Shown: positions 1 to 44,000 of the stretch, one piece after another
Position numbering within the stretch: position 1 is the first letter of the stretch
Layout: every line of letters starts with the position of its first letter
Assembly: GCA_947172415.1 (NCBI GenBank)
Contig: OX359192.1
Coordinates: 8,429,401-8,493,400 of the forward strand
Direction: 5' to 3'
Length of the DNA stretch: 64,000 nt
DNA from: Chondrosia reniformis
Taxonomy: Eukaryota; Porifera; Demospongiae; Chondrillida; Chondrillidae
Notes under the pieces: generated by a model
Told to the model about the DNA's origin: nothing
Database searches by the model: none
The model's input: the letters and a program-made list of their open reading frames with translations, nothing else
Made by a program: the position numbers and the translations under genes

Positions 1-880
1 CCTCCCCGGGTTCCGTTGTATCGATAAATCGATAATTGGTGAGCACATCCCCATGGCACCAACCGATACAGGGCAGCTACGGAACCTAGACACTGCCAAG
101 CCAACGAATTAGGACTTACTTCCTAACCCGAGGCTCCACGCTGGCAGGCCTGAATGGTCATGTTAAAATGGACTATTTATATGCAACTACGTTGTGAAAT
201 GATAAAGAAAAAAAGGAAAAAAACTGATTACCGTTGTAATTGATCCAATTCCAGATGCTTCCTTGTATTCTATACGCCTCTCTCTGGTATCACTTTGCCA
301 CCAGCGCGGTGGTGATGGAAGTGGAAATATACTAGTTATAAATACAGTTCCTAAGTATGGCTGGTGCTTAACGTTTTACACACTTAAGCACCGGCAAGCT
401 TATAAGATGGGCAAAGGACAGTTGGCAGACAAGTGGACCCCCTTAACTGTCAGTGTGGGGCTTGCCGGTGCTTAGAGCAAAAAGTGACTTAAGCACCGGC
501 AAGCTTATAAGATGGGCATAGGACAGTTGGCAGACAACTGGACCCCCTTAACTGTCAGTGTGGGGCTTGCCGGTGCTTAGAGCAAAAAGTGACTTAAGCA
601 CCGGCAAGCTTATAAGTTGGGCATAGGACAATTGGCAGACACCTGGACCCCCTTAACTGTCAGTCTCTTTCCTTTCCCTTTTGCCATTTGCCGAGCAAAA
701 GAGATAACTAAGGTGTTCTATAACATATTGTTTTATTATGGCTACTTTAACACAACTATGTGTATGGAGTTTGTAAGCTGGTGCTTATCAATGTATCGTT
801 ATATTTATATAAGTGTATTATAATTCTTGATGGTGCTTAACCACTTTGTATATATACACTTTAATGCAATATGTTCCGTT
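1..880. mobile_element. Unclassified repeat element, left copy (partial, runs off the window)
   Basis: Bases 1 to about 380 are nearly identical, in inverted orientation, to 33484 down to about 33105, so this is one end of a dispersed element that probably continues left of the window. It then carries three tandem 105-base monomers of the hairpin satellite (384-660) and afterwards single GGTGCTTA-type motifs (near 780 and 833). No transposase or reverse transcriptase is recognisable; short open frames inside it look accidental. The right border is approximate, set where similarity to the other copy and the motif family fade. Family assignment is open. Confidence 0.6.
384..660. repeat. Hairpin satellite, three monomers (left copy)
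   Basis: Three head-to-tail units of about 105 bases. Between units the sequence can fold on itself: GCTTGCCGGTGCTTA and its complement TAAGCACCGGCAAGC flank a spacer of about 15 bases (AGTCACTTTTTGCTC in the right-hand copy's orientation). The same monomer occurs about 20 times at 29611-31705 in the opposite orientation. Confidence 0.85.
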
Positions 881-1147: not shown

Positions 1148-2273
1148 CTACTTTGCAAATCTAAGTGTCCACTCTCTAGCTAAGGTATCGTGAAGCTTTC
1201 TATCTGATGCATACTGTTTAGCAATGTGTGCATTGAGTGCATTGTCTAGATTGCATTGCTGCAATAGCTTTTGAACAGAAGTAAGGACATCTTTGATTCC
1301 AAGTTTGGGATTCCACTCGTTCAGAACAGGCAGCTGCACAACACCCTGCAGTGAAATAAAAATGTCTCCTCATCAAACTCTATGGCTCAGCATGTGACTA
1401 ATGGGACCCCTCCCACTGATGGGACCTATCTGACTAATGGGACCCCTCCCTCTGATGGGACCCCTCCCACTAATGGGACCTATCTGACTAATGGGACCCC
1501 TCCCTCTGATGGGACCTATCTGACTAATGGGACCCCTCCCACTGATGGGACCTATCTGACTAATGGGACCCCTCCCACTAATGGGACCTATCTGACTAAT
1601 GGGACCCCTCCCACTGATGGGACCTATCTGACTAATGGGACCCCTCCCACTGATGGGACCTATCTGACTAATGGGACCCCTCCCACTGATGGGATCTATC
1701 TGACTAATGGGACCCCTCCCACTGATGGGACCTATCTGACTAGAATGAGAATGAAATATACATGAACTGAAAAGCTCACTTCAGCATTTATATTGCAGTG
1801 GTATATTCTTGTCAGGAAGACGACCTTTGGAGGTTCAAGAGGATAATTGTCAGAAAAGAACATTTCAAAGAAGAAGATCCCTCCTTCATAAACACTTTCA
1901 GTAGGTCCTTCCAAGATGGCAAGCCATTCAAGAAGATTCTCGCCAACATTATAGACACTAAAAGAACGATTAGACTGGGTTATCCCATGTCTACACTATA
2001 AATCAGACAAACTTACTGAAAATTTGGTAAAGGCCTTGCGATCAAGTCAACTTTCTCTGCCATCAAACTACGTGGAGATATAACACCTAATGAGGTGGAG
2101 GTTTAGACGCAGGTATCGTGTAGCCAGGCGTACCGTCTAATGGCACTGTGACTACCCTTATGATCCCGACTTCCCGCCGTAGGTACAGTGGCGGCTGATG
2201 AGCTATAAACGTGAACTTCGTCATCACTGGTGTTGTCTAAAGGTCCTGATGGTACTATTTGGTACGTTTCCAT
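1148..2273 (-). CDS. UBE2E/UBE2D-like E2 fold protein lacking the catalytic cysteine
   Basis: Four exons join in frame: 2273-2156, 2086-2017, 1957-1780 and 1345-1148, giving about 187 residues, close to UBE2E (193-201). Residues 1-45 are Ser/Asp-rich, as in class III E2s. The UBC fold follows, with VYEGGIFFFEM, NYPLEPPKVVF and the TRIYHCNIN segment that replaces HPN in UBE2E/D. Where UBE2E reads GVICLDIL this protein reads GVVQLPVL: the thioester cysteine is glutamine and the loop after it is one residue shorter. The C-terminal helices (AKQYASDRKLHDTLAREWT) are intact, so the fold looks preserved. I infer a UEV-like non-catalytic ubiquitin-pathway partner and not a decayed gene, because every splice phase and the whole frame are open. 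It is divergent from the thioesterase gene, with 138 bases between start codons. An unusual intron 3 carries a minisatellite. Confidence 0.85.
1385..1744. repeat. Minisatellite in intron 3 of the E2-like gene
   Basis: About ten 36-base units built from two related halves, ACTAATGGGACCCCTCCC and ACTGATGGGACCTATCTG, with substitutions between copies. The whole block stays open on the plus strand simply because the unit is a multiple of three; the resulting Thr-Asn-Gly-Thr peptide is not counted as a gene. Confidence 0.9.
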
Positions 2274-2411: not shown

Positions 2412-4360
2412 ATGGCTCGTGCCCTGTCCGAGATCAGTGAAGACATAGTAATTAAACCAGCACCGTCAGGAAACGCCACAGCTGCAGTAGGTGACATATA
2501 AATTTCCACTTTACAAATTCATCCATCAAGTACTATTTTTGTAGGTTGTCTTTCTTCATGGCCTAGGAGATACAGGGTAGGTCCCTTAAGTCTGACTTCA
2601 AATCAACTTACAATTAAATTATGCATTATTGTATGTTTCATTCCATTATTTCAATAGGCACATGTTGGCCGAGTACTTTTATGAGCTGAAAATTCCACAT
2701 ATAAAGATAATCTGCCCCACTGCGTAAGCACTTACCGCACTCCAATAGACATCCCAGGCTACCATACAGGTGTAGAACTCATTCTGAGTACACTATGATC
2801 ACCACTGACTGACACAGATTAGTGGCTTAAATACTACTGTGATTGCTTCAATACTAACAATTCCATTACTTACACACTTACACAGTCCTAAGAATGCTGT
2901 TACATTGAACAGAGGGATGCGTATGCCATCCTGGTTTGATCTGTATGATTTGGGAGAAGGTGAACAGCCACACTGTAAGGAAGGACTTGACAGTGCTGCC
3001 AAGGAAAGTGAGTTTCCACTCTCTTTATAAAAAGGGTTTCACTGCACAATCCCTCTGCAAAGGCTATAATAAAAATGAACTATTTATTGTACTATTGTAC
3101 TAAAGATGGTTGCACCAGATGAATAGCAATCCCTTAAATTAGTTCTTTAACTATGCTTCCTGATTCTGCATCTATCTACAATGAGATTAATGATGTGTAT
3201 TTGGCTAAGCCAGACTGTAGTGTAACATGAAAATGCTGAAAAATCTAAGAAATTATAATTTTCTTAGTTCACACACTTCTGGACAGTGAGGTCTTGAAGG
3301 GGATTGAGCCCTCCAGAGTGATCCTAGGTGGAATCTCTCAAGGTGGTGTCTTGGCACTGACTGCAGCCTACTCCTACCACTCCAACTTTGCAGGAATACT
3401 AGCTCTGAGCACATGGATTCCTTACACACTCCAGTCACAGTTGGTTGAGGTGAACCTAACTGGTCTTCACATCTTTAATCAAATATGCCCAAACATGCAG
3501 CCTCACAGGTAGCCTCACATGCAGCCTCACAGGCAGCCTCGCAGGCAGCCTCGCAGGTAGCCTCACAGGCAGCCTCACAGGTAGTCTCACAGGTAGCCTC
3601 ACGGGTAGCCTCACGGGCAGCCTCACAAATAGCCTCACAGGTAGCCTCACAGGTAGTCTTCCTTTGTGGTCATGTCAATGAAACTATAATACTATGTATT
3701 TTTCTGTTTTAAGTTTTATTATTCAGTTTTAATACAATATAGTTTATTATTGGTGTCATACAATTGTTTGATGGTTGATCTGCATTATTGTTCATATATA
3801 TATATATATTCTAGGAAATGAAATCCAACAAGAACACTCCTGTACTGCAGTGTCATGGTGACTGTGACCCAACTGTAAAATATTCTGTTGGCTGCAAAGC
3901 AGCTGAAGTTCTCAAATCTTTTAATCCTGATAATCATGATTTCAAGACTTATAAAGGATTGAGACACTGGGTCTGTCCCCAGGTAAATGTGGAAGAAAAC
4001 TCTCTGGCATCATATAGTATAAAGGTCATTTACCAATTATAGAAGCCAAGTGTTTCAATTATTTGACAAGATGATCAGCATTTGGTTGACACAGCTATAC
4101 TACATTTAAATATTTGGGCTATATAATATATTGTAGCTTACTATACAAATACTTGGCCAATCAAAATTTAGTTGCATGACACGGCTACTGCAACAACTTA
4201 CAAACAATAATCTAAAATGTATTATACCTTACATGAAACCTTGCATGGGATGATAGCTAGGAGTGACATTTACATTATTTTATTATGTACCATCTCATTG
4301 CTTCATTAGGAAATGTTGGACATCAAGGAGTACATAACCAAGTTGCTCCCAGACATTTGA
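2412..4360 (+). CDS. LYPLA1/2-like: Acyl-protein thioesterase, LYPLA1/LYPLA2 family
   Basis: Alpha/beta hydrolase that in this family removes palmitate from cysteines of membrane-associated proteins. Exons join in phase: 2412-2486, 2545-2576, 2658-2723, 2886-3007, 3268 to about 3440, about 3816-3982, and a last exon ending at 4360 with EMLDIKEYITKLLPDI. Family landmarks are FLHGLGDTG, MPSWFD, the nucleophile motif GGISQGG (Ser about 122; Ser119 in human LYPLA1), CHGDCDPTV holding the acid and RHWVCPQ holding the histidine, so the triad is complete. The N-terminus (MARALSE) lacks the Cys2 that is palmitoylated in the vertebrate enzymes. Start chosen as the first ATG in frame after the shared promoter. 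Confidence 0.93.
3492..3655. repeat. 12-base minisatellite in thioesterase intron
   Basis: About 13 copies of CCTCACAGGTAG with variants, directly after the exon carrying the catalytic serine. Most units contain CAGGTA or CAGGCA, i.e. the consensus of a splice junction, repeated every 12 bases. Confidence 0.85.
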
Positions 4361-33484: not shown

Positions 33485-34155
33485 GATAAGGCCGGTTCTG
33501 TCACTCCGTGACTACCAAAGCCGAAACTGCACCAGTTAGGCGTTACCAACGATCCTGGCCCCAGACGACCAGTGATGGAAGGACGGCTCGCATTGTGGAT
33601 GGTAACGTGAACTCCCTGCGTCGAGCAAAATCCAAGTCACACCTCCTCGCGGTGCTCGACGGTAACAGCAGTCTCTGCTGGCTAACGTGACTGGTCTTTT
33701 TTCTTCTTTCTTTTGCTGATTATTGTTCGATTATCGCAAGAGGGTTCAAAACCCACTCTAGCGGCTGTTTTTCTCTTTTTTCCTTATCGTTAGCATATCG
33801 CGATATTTGTTGAAGGGTCTGGGAACCGTTTGAGTTCCAAACACGCTTGGGTCGTTTTTTCTTCTTTTTTCTCGTTGTGATATGTAAAGTTAATTTGAAG
33901 AGAATTCAAAAAACTCTTTACAGGTGTAGACTATATTTTTACTCTTACTTTATTTTACAATGTAGGGCCTACTTAGGAAAAATTCAAAACATTGGAATTC
34001 ATAATAAATATCATACAAAGTTAAAGCGCCCATACCGGTACTGAAAAATGTGTTAAAGTGCTGGTCCTATGAATATCATTATATCTCATGAGTATGATTT
34101 TAAAGACAATGGATGTCAATAGTATAATAATAATAATAATTCAATGTTCTTAAAT
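33485..34155. other. Island right part, no supported gene
   Basis: Begins with a GC-richer stretch (33490-33690) with a 60-codon frame of no recognisable family, then T-rich sequence. GAGGGTTCAAAACCCACTC near 33740 resembles a tRNA T-arm but I cannot find an acceptor stem or A box, so it may be a SINE relic. Confidence 0.4.
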
Positions 34156-41000: not shown

Positions 41001-44000
41001 TACGTATAACAATTCTATAATAGTGTGTTACAATTCTATAATAATACATACATATGTACCCGAAAAATTAAAGCAACATCTTTGCGGAACATGTCTTGGC
41101 CTTTCTTATCTTCGAGACAGAGATACTCAATAATCCTTGCAACGTAACTTTCTGAAGTGAAGGCATCATAAATAACCTTCTCATGCTGCAGCAAAAGACA
41201 TGTGCAAATATATCTATACTTACACCTACCCAAATGTGTCATGCACACACAATGATTTGTGGAACATTGTATGCTTACTTCACTGAGCTCGTCTCTTGAT
41301 CTATCTACCTTTGGTTGTTTATCCAGAGGGGCAAATCTTTTAAACTCTCTGTTATTGGAGTAACCATAGTGAAATAATAAGCAACACAGACACATTATTA
41401 TACACAATAAGCACCATATATTTAATATAAATGTGGTCCTCACTTTGGCCAACAATAGAAGCCAAAATAACTTTTATACACAATAAGCACCATATATTTA
41501 ATATAAATGTGGTCCTCACTTTGGCCAGCAATAGAAGCCAAAATAACTTTTATCCACAAACGGAAACGAATTCCATTCTTCAGCTGTCTTGGGAGCTCTC
41601 TCTGGATCATAAAGCAGCCTGCAGGATAGAATAACTAAGTGTTGCACAAGGACCATCAGAGGGCGTAGCTAACCATTCATTGTCCTCTCTCTCTCCGGGT
41701 GTCATGTTATCTGGGGGCTCCATACCAGCTGTGGGAGGGGGATGGGGGAGGGGGGGAGGAGTAGGGGAAGGAGTGGGAGAGGAGTGGAGGAAAGAGTGGG
41801 AGAGGAGTGGAGGAGTGGGAGAGCAGAGAAGGAGTAAGATACATCAGCAGGCTTCACATACATAAGTGAGGATATAAACCTATGTACGTACCATCTCTCT
41901 TCAAGTCCACTCTCATTTTCAGAGGTTCCCTACGACTTAACCAGAGGTAGTCACGGAAACACCTCCAAGCATCCTACCACAGTGGTGATAATGGACATAT
42001 TAGATATATCAGCAAAACGTACATAAACTTAGTCTTGCTCACTTTTCTGATTTCAGAGGACTCGTGAATCAGTGAGTGGACAATGACCTTTAGAGCCCGA
42101 ATATGCAGCTCCTTGTCCATGGGAATCAACAGGCCAATCAGCTGGATACAGAACATTCCAAACCTCCAGCTCCTGCACCAGGGAAGAGGAGACATTCTAA
42201 AACATAACATCTCTCGGATGCATCAGGACAAGAGAGAAAACATATCAATAACTAAAAAGATAAATCAAGTTATGTCAGCAGATCAAGTCCTTTACACAAA
42301 CCTATTTTTGTTTTAAACATTTAAATCTTATTAGGACTGCCTGTTGTATGGAGCATACTTACAGATTACTGTTTTCAAACAGGTCCACCAGTATCAAAGT
42401 GAGCCTATTTAGGAGATCGTGTCTCTTCTTGTTGAAACCTTCCAGGTTGCCAACACCTTTGTCAAACAGCTCAGAACTGAGGGGTTTGGCAAGTCTCCCA
42501 GCCAGTGAAATCACCTCATCTGAAAGCTATAGAAACAGAGTTGCCAATTGAGGACAGTTGTAAAAAGAATGATACTTTAAATTAGCCCTACATGGAAATT
42601 TACAAATGTTCCTGTAAGTTATGAGAGATTGTGTGCCAAGCCTCACCTTGTAGTCTGCATACAGCCCCATTGCCTGGCGATCCAAAGTCATCATCAGCTT
42701 CAGGAAGAGCTGTGATATAGATGGCTTCTCTGAATGTCCGGCCTAGTATCCAGGGAGAGAAGAGGTGATCATACAGAAGCAGAGAGAAGACCTTAAGAGT
42801 GCAAACAGGAAGACAGCACTGGAAATTGCTTACCTTTATTAAAGCAGGCAGGAGGAGTTCCAGTACGTCCAGAACCTTCACATAATAATCTGATACACTC
42901 GGCATCTTCAAAACATACAGTGCTCCCTGTCAAGACAAAACTTCAAACTCTAATTAGATTCATAGATATCATATGAATGTCATTGTCTGATCAACAGAGG
43001 GTCAGTATAAATAGTGTTACATTCCACTGGTTTGTGGGCCAGCTAAGTTGTGTGGATACTTCGAATTGGTTTCAAAATAGACTGTCTCTCTACTTTAGGA
43101 GGTTCAATTCCTCCACCTATCCACTGACGCAATCTGGTCTTTTTCCCTCTTGAATATTAACCAATTTCACAAGATGTACCCTTGGACACTCTTTAAATCA
43201 GACTCCACCACATTTAGAAGGAGCATGGGTAACAAATGTGATTATCACTTGATTACTGTAAGATCTTCCCTTGACAAATACACTACCACCAACCTTTAGC
43301 TTCTCGTGTGAGATGGCAGGATCGTCTTTGAGGTACTTGGGCAGCTCAACAGCAATTGATCTGACACCATACTTGTAGGAAAACATTGCATTATAAAGAA
43401 ATGCTTGGGCCTTTAGTCGAACCTAGGGTTAAAGTATACACAGTTTGGACAGCAAAATGGATATCAGAGAGATAATTAAACAAATAATTAGTTTTCCAAC
43501 CGACCTCTGGGTAGTCACTGACGCTCAATGCCAGAAGATGATGCAACAATCTGTGATGCAACGCAGTCATATTCCATGTCCTACCAGCCACTTGTCTCTT
43601 CTGTGTGTATATACAACAAAATAAAAGAAAGACCTCCACACCCATAGCACACCCCCATGGCACACACCCCCATGGCACACACCCCTATGGTACACACCCC
43701 TATGGTACACACCCCTATGGAGACACCCCCATGGCACACACCCCTATGGCACACACCCCTATGGAGACACCCCTATGGCACACACCCCTATGGTACACAC
43801 CCCTATGGCACACACCCCCATGGCACACACCCCCATGGTACACACCCCTATGGCACACACCCCTATGGAGACACCCCCATGGCACACACCCCCATGGCAC
43901 ACACCCCCATGGTACACACCCCCATGGTACACATGTGTACCTCGTGCTGTAAGTATATTCTTGACAGAAGAACAGTTCTCAAATGTTGTTTGTTACGATG

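What the first reader, a model, noticed from the sequence alone, without database searches (positions are those of the whole stretch)
1148..2273. UBE2E-like E2 with the catalytic cysteine replaced by glutamine
All four exons are open and in phase and the UBC fold landmarks are kept, yet GVICLDIL of UBE2E reads GVVQLPVL, and the following loop is one residue shorter. Known inactive E2s (UBE2V, TSG101, AKTIP) belong to other branches; an inactive class III E2 with the Ser-rich N-terminal extension is not one I know. It could be a UEV-like scaffold for an E3 or for polyubiquitin geometry, or a competitive decoy.
Basis: partly seen in the sequence, partly recalled or inferred. Interest (0 to 1): 0.72.

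Follow-up and report, generated by a model that had tools for sequence, protein, structure and literature searches.

The report
Sponge ubiquitin-conjugating enzyme without catalytic cysteine
A sponge gene encodes a protein that still has the shape of a ubiquitin-attaching enzyme but has lost the part that does the chemistry, so it probably works as a structural piece of a ubiquitin ligase, much as the plant protein COP10 does.

Summary
Four exons (window 1148-1345, 1780-1957, 2017-2086, 2156-2273, minus strand) splice with GT-AG ends into an intact 187-aa protein with a full UBC domain (UQ_con 127.6 bits), closest to human UBE2E1-3 (about 46% identity). The catalytic Cys is Gln; all three codon bases differ. 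A motif scan of 20 kb found no alternative Cys exon. The loss is wider than the Cys: 4 of 17 recalled functional sites survive, against 45 of 75 other invariant sites, while 34 of 37 other invariant hydrophobic sites keep their class. Neutral simulations do not reach the conservative substitution pattern (0 of 1000). The assembly, identified by size as Chondrosia reniformis, has DET1 but no canonical UBE2E that I could recognise. My best reading is a COP10-like non-catalytic subunit. DET1 partnership is inferred only: one of five known DET1-contact residues is kept. No ortholog was found; expression and dN/dS could not be tested.

The parts
2156..2273 (-). exon 1: 39 codons from the ATG plus one base; with the split codon it gives the 40-aa N-terminal extension METYQ..DHKG
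   Evidence: ATG is the first Met of the stop-to-stop frame; donor GTAGTC
2017..2086 (-). exon 2: UBC helix 1 (VISPRSLMAEKVDLIARPLPNFH)
   Evidence: acceptor CATTAG, donor GTAAGT
1780..1957 (-). exon 3: UBC beta sheet to HCN motif (VYNVGENLLEW..TRIYHCNINAE)
   Evidence: acceptor TTTTAG, donor GTGAGC
1148..1345 (-). exon 4: active-site strand with Gln for Cys (GVVQLPVLNEW), C-terminal part, stop
   Evidence: acceptor CTGCAG
1334..1336 (-). CAG codon (Gln) at the catalytic Cys position (UBE2E2 C139)
1397..1742 (+). 36-bp minisatellite (9.6 copies) inside intron 3; no Cys-motif exon found there

Best explanation
The gene encodes a non-catalytic E2 variant derived from the UBE2E branch. It should not be chargeable with ubiquitin: the nucleophile is gone, and recalled E1-contact and donor-ubiquitin contact sites are changed. 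The pattern of substitutions says that the UBC fold is kept. Most likely it works as a stoichiometric structural subunit of a cullin-RING ligase: it takes the place that UBE2E has on DET1 in mammals and leaves the chemistry to a UBE2D recruited separately, which is how COP10 is thought to act in plants. Shown here: gene structure, homology, the dead site, change at other functional sites, a substitution pattern that neutral simulation does not give, presence of DET1, no canonical UBE2E recognised. Inferred: expression, fold, DET1 binding, help to UBE2D. I give about 0.8 to 'functional pseudo-E2' and about 0.35 to 'DET1 partner'.
For: Intact spliced ORF and GT-AG introns. UQ_con 127.6 bits over profile positions 3-139 of 140. 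PDB: the first ten rows are UBE2E (137.3 to 126.8 bits), the best UBE2D has 117.2 (60 of 308 rows shown). In the 11-row tree it groups with UBE2E in 876 of 1000 bootstrap trees and with UBE2D in 0. 4 of 17 functional sites kept against 45 of 75 other sites that are the same in human UBE2E2 and sponge UBE2D, Fisher p 0.008; 34 of 37 other such hydrophobic sites keep class. Substituted sites more conservative than in 1000 neutral runs (mean BLOSUM62 -0.28 against -0.79, 0 reach it); hydrophobic retention reached by 11 of 1000; with stops allowed 17 of 1000 runs had none. DET1 is encoded (C4:5835041-5836348); all four PDB sequences matched by its longest exon are labelled DET1 homolog. A UBE2E2 core query finds UBE2D (64%), this gene and, as classed by eye, other E2s, no UBE2E. 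Human UBE2E2 with S76G and C139S was assembled with DET1, DDB1, DDA1, COP1 and c-Jun, so the Cys is not needed for assembly (PMC12808801 passages). COP10 precedent.
Against: Of five UBE2E2 residues listed as contacting DET1 (T68, R88, R124, R126, T201) only R126 is kept. Sponge DET1 keeps H297 and has Glu for D289, but Asn for D324 and Glu for R317; its claw (257-328) is no more diverged than most of the rest (27 of 71 identical, against 49 of 138, 48 of 128 and 20 of 32). Loss of the D324:R88/R124 pair on both sides would fit co-change but also fits drift at this identity. DDA1 was not found, in a search that rang in no genome and so says nothing; DDB1 and COP1 were not searched. The tree does not reject other placements (AU p 0.068 with UBE2D, 0.137 with vWA-UBC, 0.13 with UBE2N, 0.0997 for UBE2D and UBE2E together without it) and the branch is long. 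Gly/Pro/Trp retention is not unusual (87 of 1000). No expression evidence; no ortholog found.
Confidence: 0.45

Rival explanations
1. A functional pseudo-E2 with a partner other than DET1, for example another RING or cullin ligase or a real E2, working as an allosteric or scaffold subunit.
For: UBC homology over the whole domain and intact frame; known DET1 contacts mostly changed.
Against: No specific partner is suggested by any search; DET1 is a known partner that takes UBE2E and not UBE2D3.
Confidence: 0.35
2. A gene decaying recently: formerly UBE2E under selection, now a pseudogene or little expressed, not yet broken.
For: Long branch; Gly/Pro/Trp retention no better than neutral (87 of 1000); no transcript data.
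Against: Three-base change at the Cys codon plus changes at 12 other functional sites, with all splice sites and 187 codons intact; conservative substitutions (0 of 1000 neutral runs). The simulation takes the human sequence as ancestor and does not exclude decay after a long selected history.
Confidence: 0.13
3. A competitive decoy that binds RING E3s and blocks active UBE2D.
For: UBC domain present; P95 of the SPA motif kept.
Against: SPA is NPK, F62 is L, K4/R5/K8 are R/S/A; that these are E3 or E1 contacts is recalled (PMC9790923 passages name an SPA motif and E1 and E3 regions).
Confidence: 0.05
4. A UBE2V-like partner of Ubc13 for Lys63 chains.
For: UBC-type protein without Cys; UBE2N exons are present in the genome, by eye (C8).
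Against: The 60 PDB rows shown of 308 are UBE2E and UBE2D-type, none UBE2V; UEV model below cut-off.
Confidence: 0.02

Closest known systems
UBE2E1/UBE2E2/UBE2E3 (human E2s with N-terminal extension)
   Same: Best sequence match, HCN motif, N-terminal extension, UBC domain
   Different: Catalytic Cys is Gln, D87 position is Pro, D117 position is Asn, loop one residue shorter, DET1 contacts R88, R124, T68, T201 changed
COP10 (plant E2 variant in the COP10-DET1-DDB1-DDA1 module)
   Same: E2-like protein without the catalytic Cys; the organism here also has DET1
   Different: Animal, not plant; apparently independent origin from UBE2E (inferred); DET1 binding and E2 stimulation not shown; no COP10 sequence was at hand for comparison
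UBE2V1/2 (MMS2), TSG101, AKTIP
   Same: UBC fold without catalytic Cys (recalled)
   Different: Other branches (recalled); Pfam UEV match below cut-off, nearly whole UQ_con match; a separate UEV exon, 68.2 bits, lies at C6:4893935
Sponge vWA-UBC proteins of the same genome with dead UBC (C12:5552822, 5615369)
   Same: UBC with GGIGLPIL in place of the Cys strand, also LP after the site
   Different: Large open frames, one of the two scanned and shown to hold vWA; about 30% identical. Not in the 11-row tree; a join with the other vWA-UBC rows was not favoured nor rejected (p-AU 0.137)

Membership tests
UBE2E family | UBC domain most similar to UBE2E | tested here: met
   First ten PDB rows are UBE2E; 66 of 145 identical to UBE2E2 against 57 of 145 to sponge UBE2D; 876 of 1000 bootstrap trees, but AU tests reject no alternative
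UBE2E family | catalytic Cys | tested here: not met
   Gln at the C139 position, no relocated Cys
UBE2E family | N-terminal extension | tested here: met
   40 aa from exon 1 before the UBC domain, 6 Ser; similarity to the UBE2E extension itself was not tested
UBE2E family | DET1-contact residues T68, R88, R124, R126, T201 | tested here: not met
   1 of 5 kept
E2 variant (UEV in the wide sense) | UBC domain without catalytic Cys | tested here: met
UEV family (UBE2V/TSG101 in the narrow sense) | match to the Pfam UEV model | tested here: not met
   21.9 bits, cut-off 27
COP10 | binds DET1-DDB1 and stimulates active E2s | not testable with these tools
   DET1 gene is present; binding needs an experiment
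COP10 | sequence orthology with plant COP10 | not tested
   no COP10 sequence was retrieved in any call

The most novel reading that the evidence does not exclude
In this sponge lineage the only UBE2E is a dead one: the active UBE2E has been turned into a COP10-like structural subunit of the DET1 ligase, so animals and plants would have converged independently on a Cys-less E2 at the same place in the same complex.
Probability: 0.25. Interest if true: 0.8.

Novelty: new variant of a known kind. Interest (0 to 1): 0.55.

Why it matters
Why DET1 complexes carry an E2 is unsettled: with COP1 alone, human UBE2E2, wild type or catalytically inactive, did not ubiquitinate c-Jun, limited modification was seen with the DET1-bound UBE2E2, and UBE2D3 gave the marked increase (PMC12808801 passages). 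An animal lineage whose only UBE2E is dead would say that the E2 fold, not its chemistry, is what the complex needs, and would be a natural counterpart to plant COP10.

Tried and rejected
Alternative Cys exon: six-frame motif scan of 20 kb around the gene gave four matches to the relaxed motif, none of them E2-like by eye, and none to the strict one. Sequencing error: three bases differ from either Cys codon. Relocated Cys: only two Cys, both also in UBE2E2. Rapid divergence of the DET1 claw as a sign of co-evolution: not seen. DDA1 by Pfam: no hit, but nothing rang in the controls either. A printed report of this protein or of a sponge COP10-like E2: six paper searches bearing on it listed none; I saw the rows listed and some passages, not all hits. 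The other two paper searches were for the genome note and for vWA-UBC-U-box proteins. Structure prediction was not attempted: the tool takes proteins that the DNA gives letter for letter, and this one is spliced. The 17 functional sites are recalled from the UBE2D literature; no call supplies the list. Classification of the other E2 exons (UBE2N, C, W, Z, L, K, G, S, I, J, A/B) is by eye and recalled; two (C4:5783937, C3:8208883) I could not class. dN/dS and expression could not be tested.

Full report
What is there. On the minus strand of the window, exons 2156-2273, 2017-2086, 1780-1957 and 1148-1345 join to a 564-nt reading frame of 187 codons and a stop; all three introns are GT-AG. The protein matches Pfam UQ_con with 127.6 bits over profile positions 3-139 of 140, and the UEV model with 21.9 bits, under its cut-off of 27. 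Against the PDB, 308 distinct sequences match and 60 are shown; the first ten are UBE2E1-3 (137.3 to 126.8 bits) and the best UBE2D has 117.2. The alignments put Gln at the catalytic Cys and show one residue missing before the next Trp.

Where it is. The window lies in a 117,379,552-base assembly of 15 contigs. The kidney sponge Chondrosia reniformis assembly has 117.37 Mb, 14 chromosomal pseudomolecules and a mitochondrial genome (abstract in the listing) and a longest scaffold of 10.41 Mb (passage); contig C1 here has 10,409,357 bases. The species is thus inferred from size, not read from a record. That assembly has QV 69.8 but BUSCO complete 71.1%, fragmented 12.2%, missing 16.8%, so absence claims below are moderate.

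Is it a chance or a broken gene? Starting from UBE2E2 and mutating without selection to the observed 66 of 145 identity, 17 of 1000 runs had no stop codon; with stops forbidden, 0 of 1000 runs had substitutions as conservative as observed (mean BLOSUM62 -0.28, simulated -0.79 with s.d. 0.17), 11 of 1000 kept as many hydrophobic residues (43 of 51 observed), and 87 of 1000 kept as many Gly/Pro/Trp (15 of 24). The last figure is not significant. The test takes the human sequence for the ancestor, and it does not exclude loss of function after a long selected history. An acyl-protein-thioesterase-like gene (Abhydrolase_2) on the other strand has its likely start codon at 2412, 138 bp from this one, so a shared promoter is possible (inference).

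How dead is it? I took 17 sites of UBE2D/E that are recalled as contacts of E1, RING E3, donor or backside ubiquitin, or as catalytic; all 17 are the same in human UBE2E2 and in the sponge's own UBE2D. The protein keeps 4 of 17 (N77, L86, P95 and N114 in UBE2D numbering), against 45 of 75 other sites that are the same in those two (Fisher p 0.008), while 34 of 37 other such hydrophobic sites keep their class, 23 of them identical. Changed are C85 (Q), D87 (P), D117 (N), K4 (R), R5 (S), K8 (A), S22 (H), F62 (L), S94 (N), A96 (K), K101 (D), L104 (T) and S108 (K); K4 to R is conservative. So most of the working surface has changed while the core is kept, which is what a structural pseudoenzyme looks like. 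The only two Cys of the protein have counterparts in UBE2E2 that are not the catalytic one.

What branch? In a 13-row tree the nearest rows by path are UBE2E, but the tool warns that long branches meet. After dropping the two vWA-UBC rows of C12, the 11-row tree joins the protein to UBE2E with support 88/89, in 876 of 1000 bootstrap trees; 0 trees join it to UBE2D. AU tests do not reject UBE2D (0.068), vWA-UBC (0.137) or UBE2N (0.13) as partners, nor UBE2D and UBE2E together without it (0.0997). Of 53 sites that differ between human UBE2E2 and sponge UBE2D, 17 match UBE2E, 8 UBE2D and 28 neither.

Is there another UBE2E? A search of the genome with the UBE2E2 core gives 17 matches: the C11 gene (64%; the 60 rows shown of its 78 strong PDB matches are UBE2D1-3, fusions with them, and 1z2u, named E2 2, at 312.6 to 291.3 bits), two exons of this gene, four vWA-UBC or UBC-U-box frames, and others that I class by eye as other E2s, two of them unclassed. 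With the protein itself there are 19 matches at E up to 0.1, of which 4 are this gene. So I recognise no active UBE2E; a short, diverged or missing exon set cannot be excluded.

How might it work? In human cells DET1 pulled down UBE2E1-3 and not UBE2D3; the contacts named are D289:R126, H297:T201, D324:R88 and R124, and R317:T68 (PMC12808801 section 8). UBE2E2 with S76G and C139S was assembled with DET1, DDB1, DDA1, COP1 and c-Jun (passages). UBE2E2, wild type or inactive, with COP1-c-Jun did not ubiquitinate c-Jun; limited modification was reported with the DET1-bound UBE2E2 complex, and adding UBE2D3 and neddylated cullin gave the marked increase (passages). In plants the module has COP10, an E2 variant without the catalytic Cys that enhances other E2s in vitro (PMC6761389 passage) and likely raises CRL4 activity (PMC6128693 passage); the mammalian module has UBE2E (PMC6288126 passage). 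The sponge has DET1 (the four PDB sequences that match its longest exon are all labelled DET1 homolog). I therefore propose that this protein is a COP10-like structural subunit. Against it: only R126 of the five contact residues is kept, and sponge DET1 has E289, H297, N324 and E317. The pair D324 to R88/R124 is lost on both sides, which fits co-change but equally fits drift, since the claw (27 of 71 identical) is diverged like most of the protein. DDA1 was not found in a search whose controls were silent; DDB1 and COP1 were not searched.

What could not be done. No ortholog came from the two collections searched, no metagenome scan was allowed, and no transcript data are at hand. The fold was not predicted because the spliced protein is not given letter for letter by the DNA.

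Verdict. A real, intact, catalytically dead E2 most like UBE2E in a sponge: new variant of a known kind.

Noticed in passing
G000:C9:1465674 (L003), G000:C6:8359181 (L002): Open frames that fuse a UBC domain with intact Cys to a U-box, in C9 also with vWA (Pfam): E2 and E3 in one protein. One paper search listed two papers, neither on such fusions by title and abstract.
   Followed up: partly
G000:C12:5552822 (L004), 5615369 (L005), 5676013 (L029): Further large open frames with a UBC domain that lacks the catalytic Cys (GGIGLPIL, GYIFAPEL); vWA was found by Pfam in L004 and L029, L005 was not scanned.
   Followed up: partly
window 43036-43144 +: Vault RNA match, 46.2 bits (gathering 34), full length model 1-99, ending in a T run.
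   Followed up: partly
window 33620-33692 +: HDV-like ribozyme match (HDV-F-prausnitzii, 45.4 bits, gathering 44).
   Followed up: no
window 2412-4360 +: Acyl-protein-thioesterase-like gene (Abhydrolase_2) head to head with the E2 gene, 138 bp between the likely start codons.
   Followed up: partly
window 382-664, 1397-1742, 3499-3656: Tandem repeats of 105, 36 and 12 bp.
   Followed up: no
G000:C8:6537462, C1:3900787, C5:2635030: Three nearly identical UBC exon copies (CKVCRYRTP.CIGTFRLKMEFSEEY..), perhaps UBE2A/B-like duplicates.
   Followed up: no
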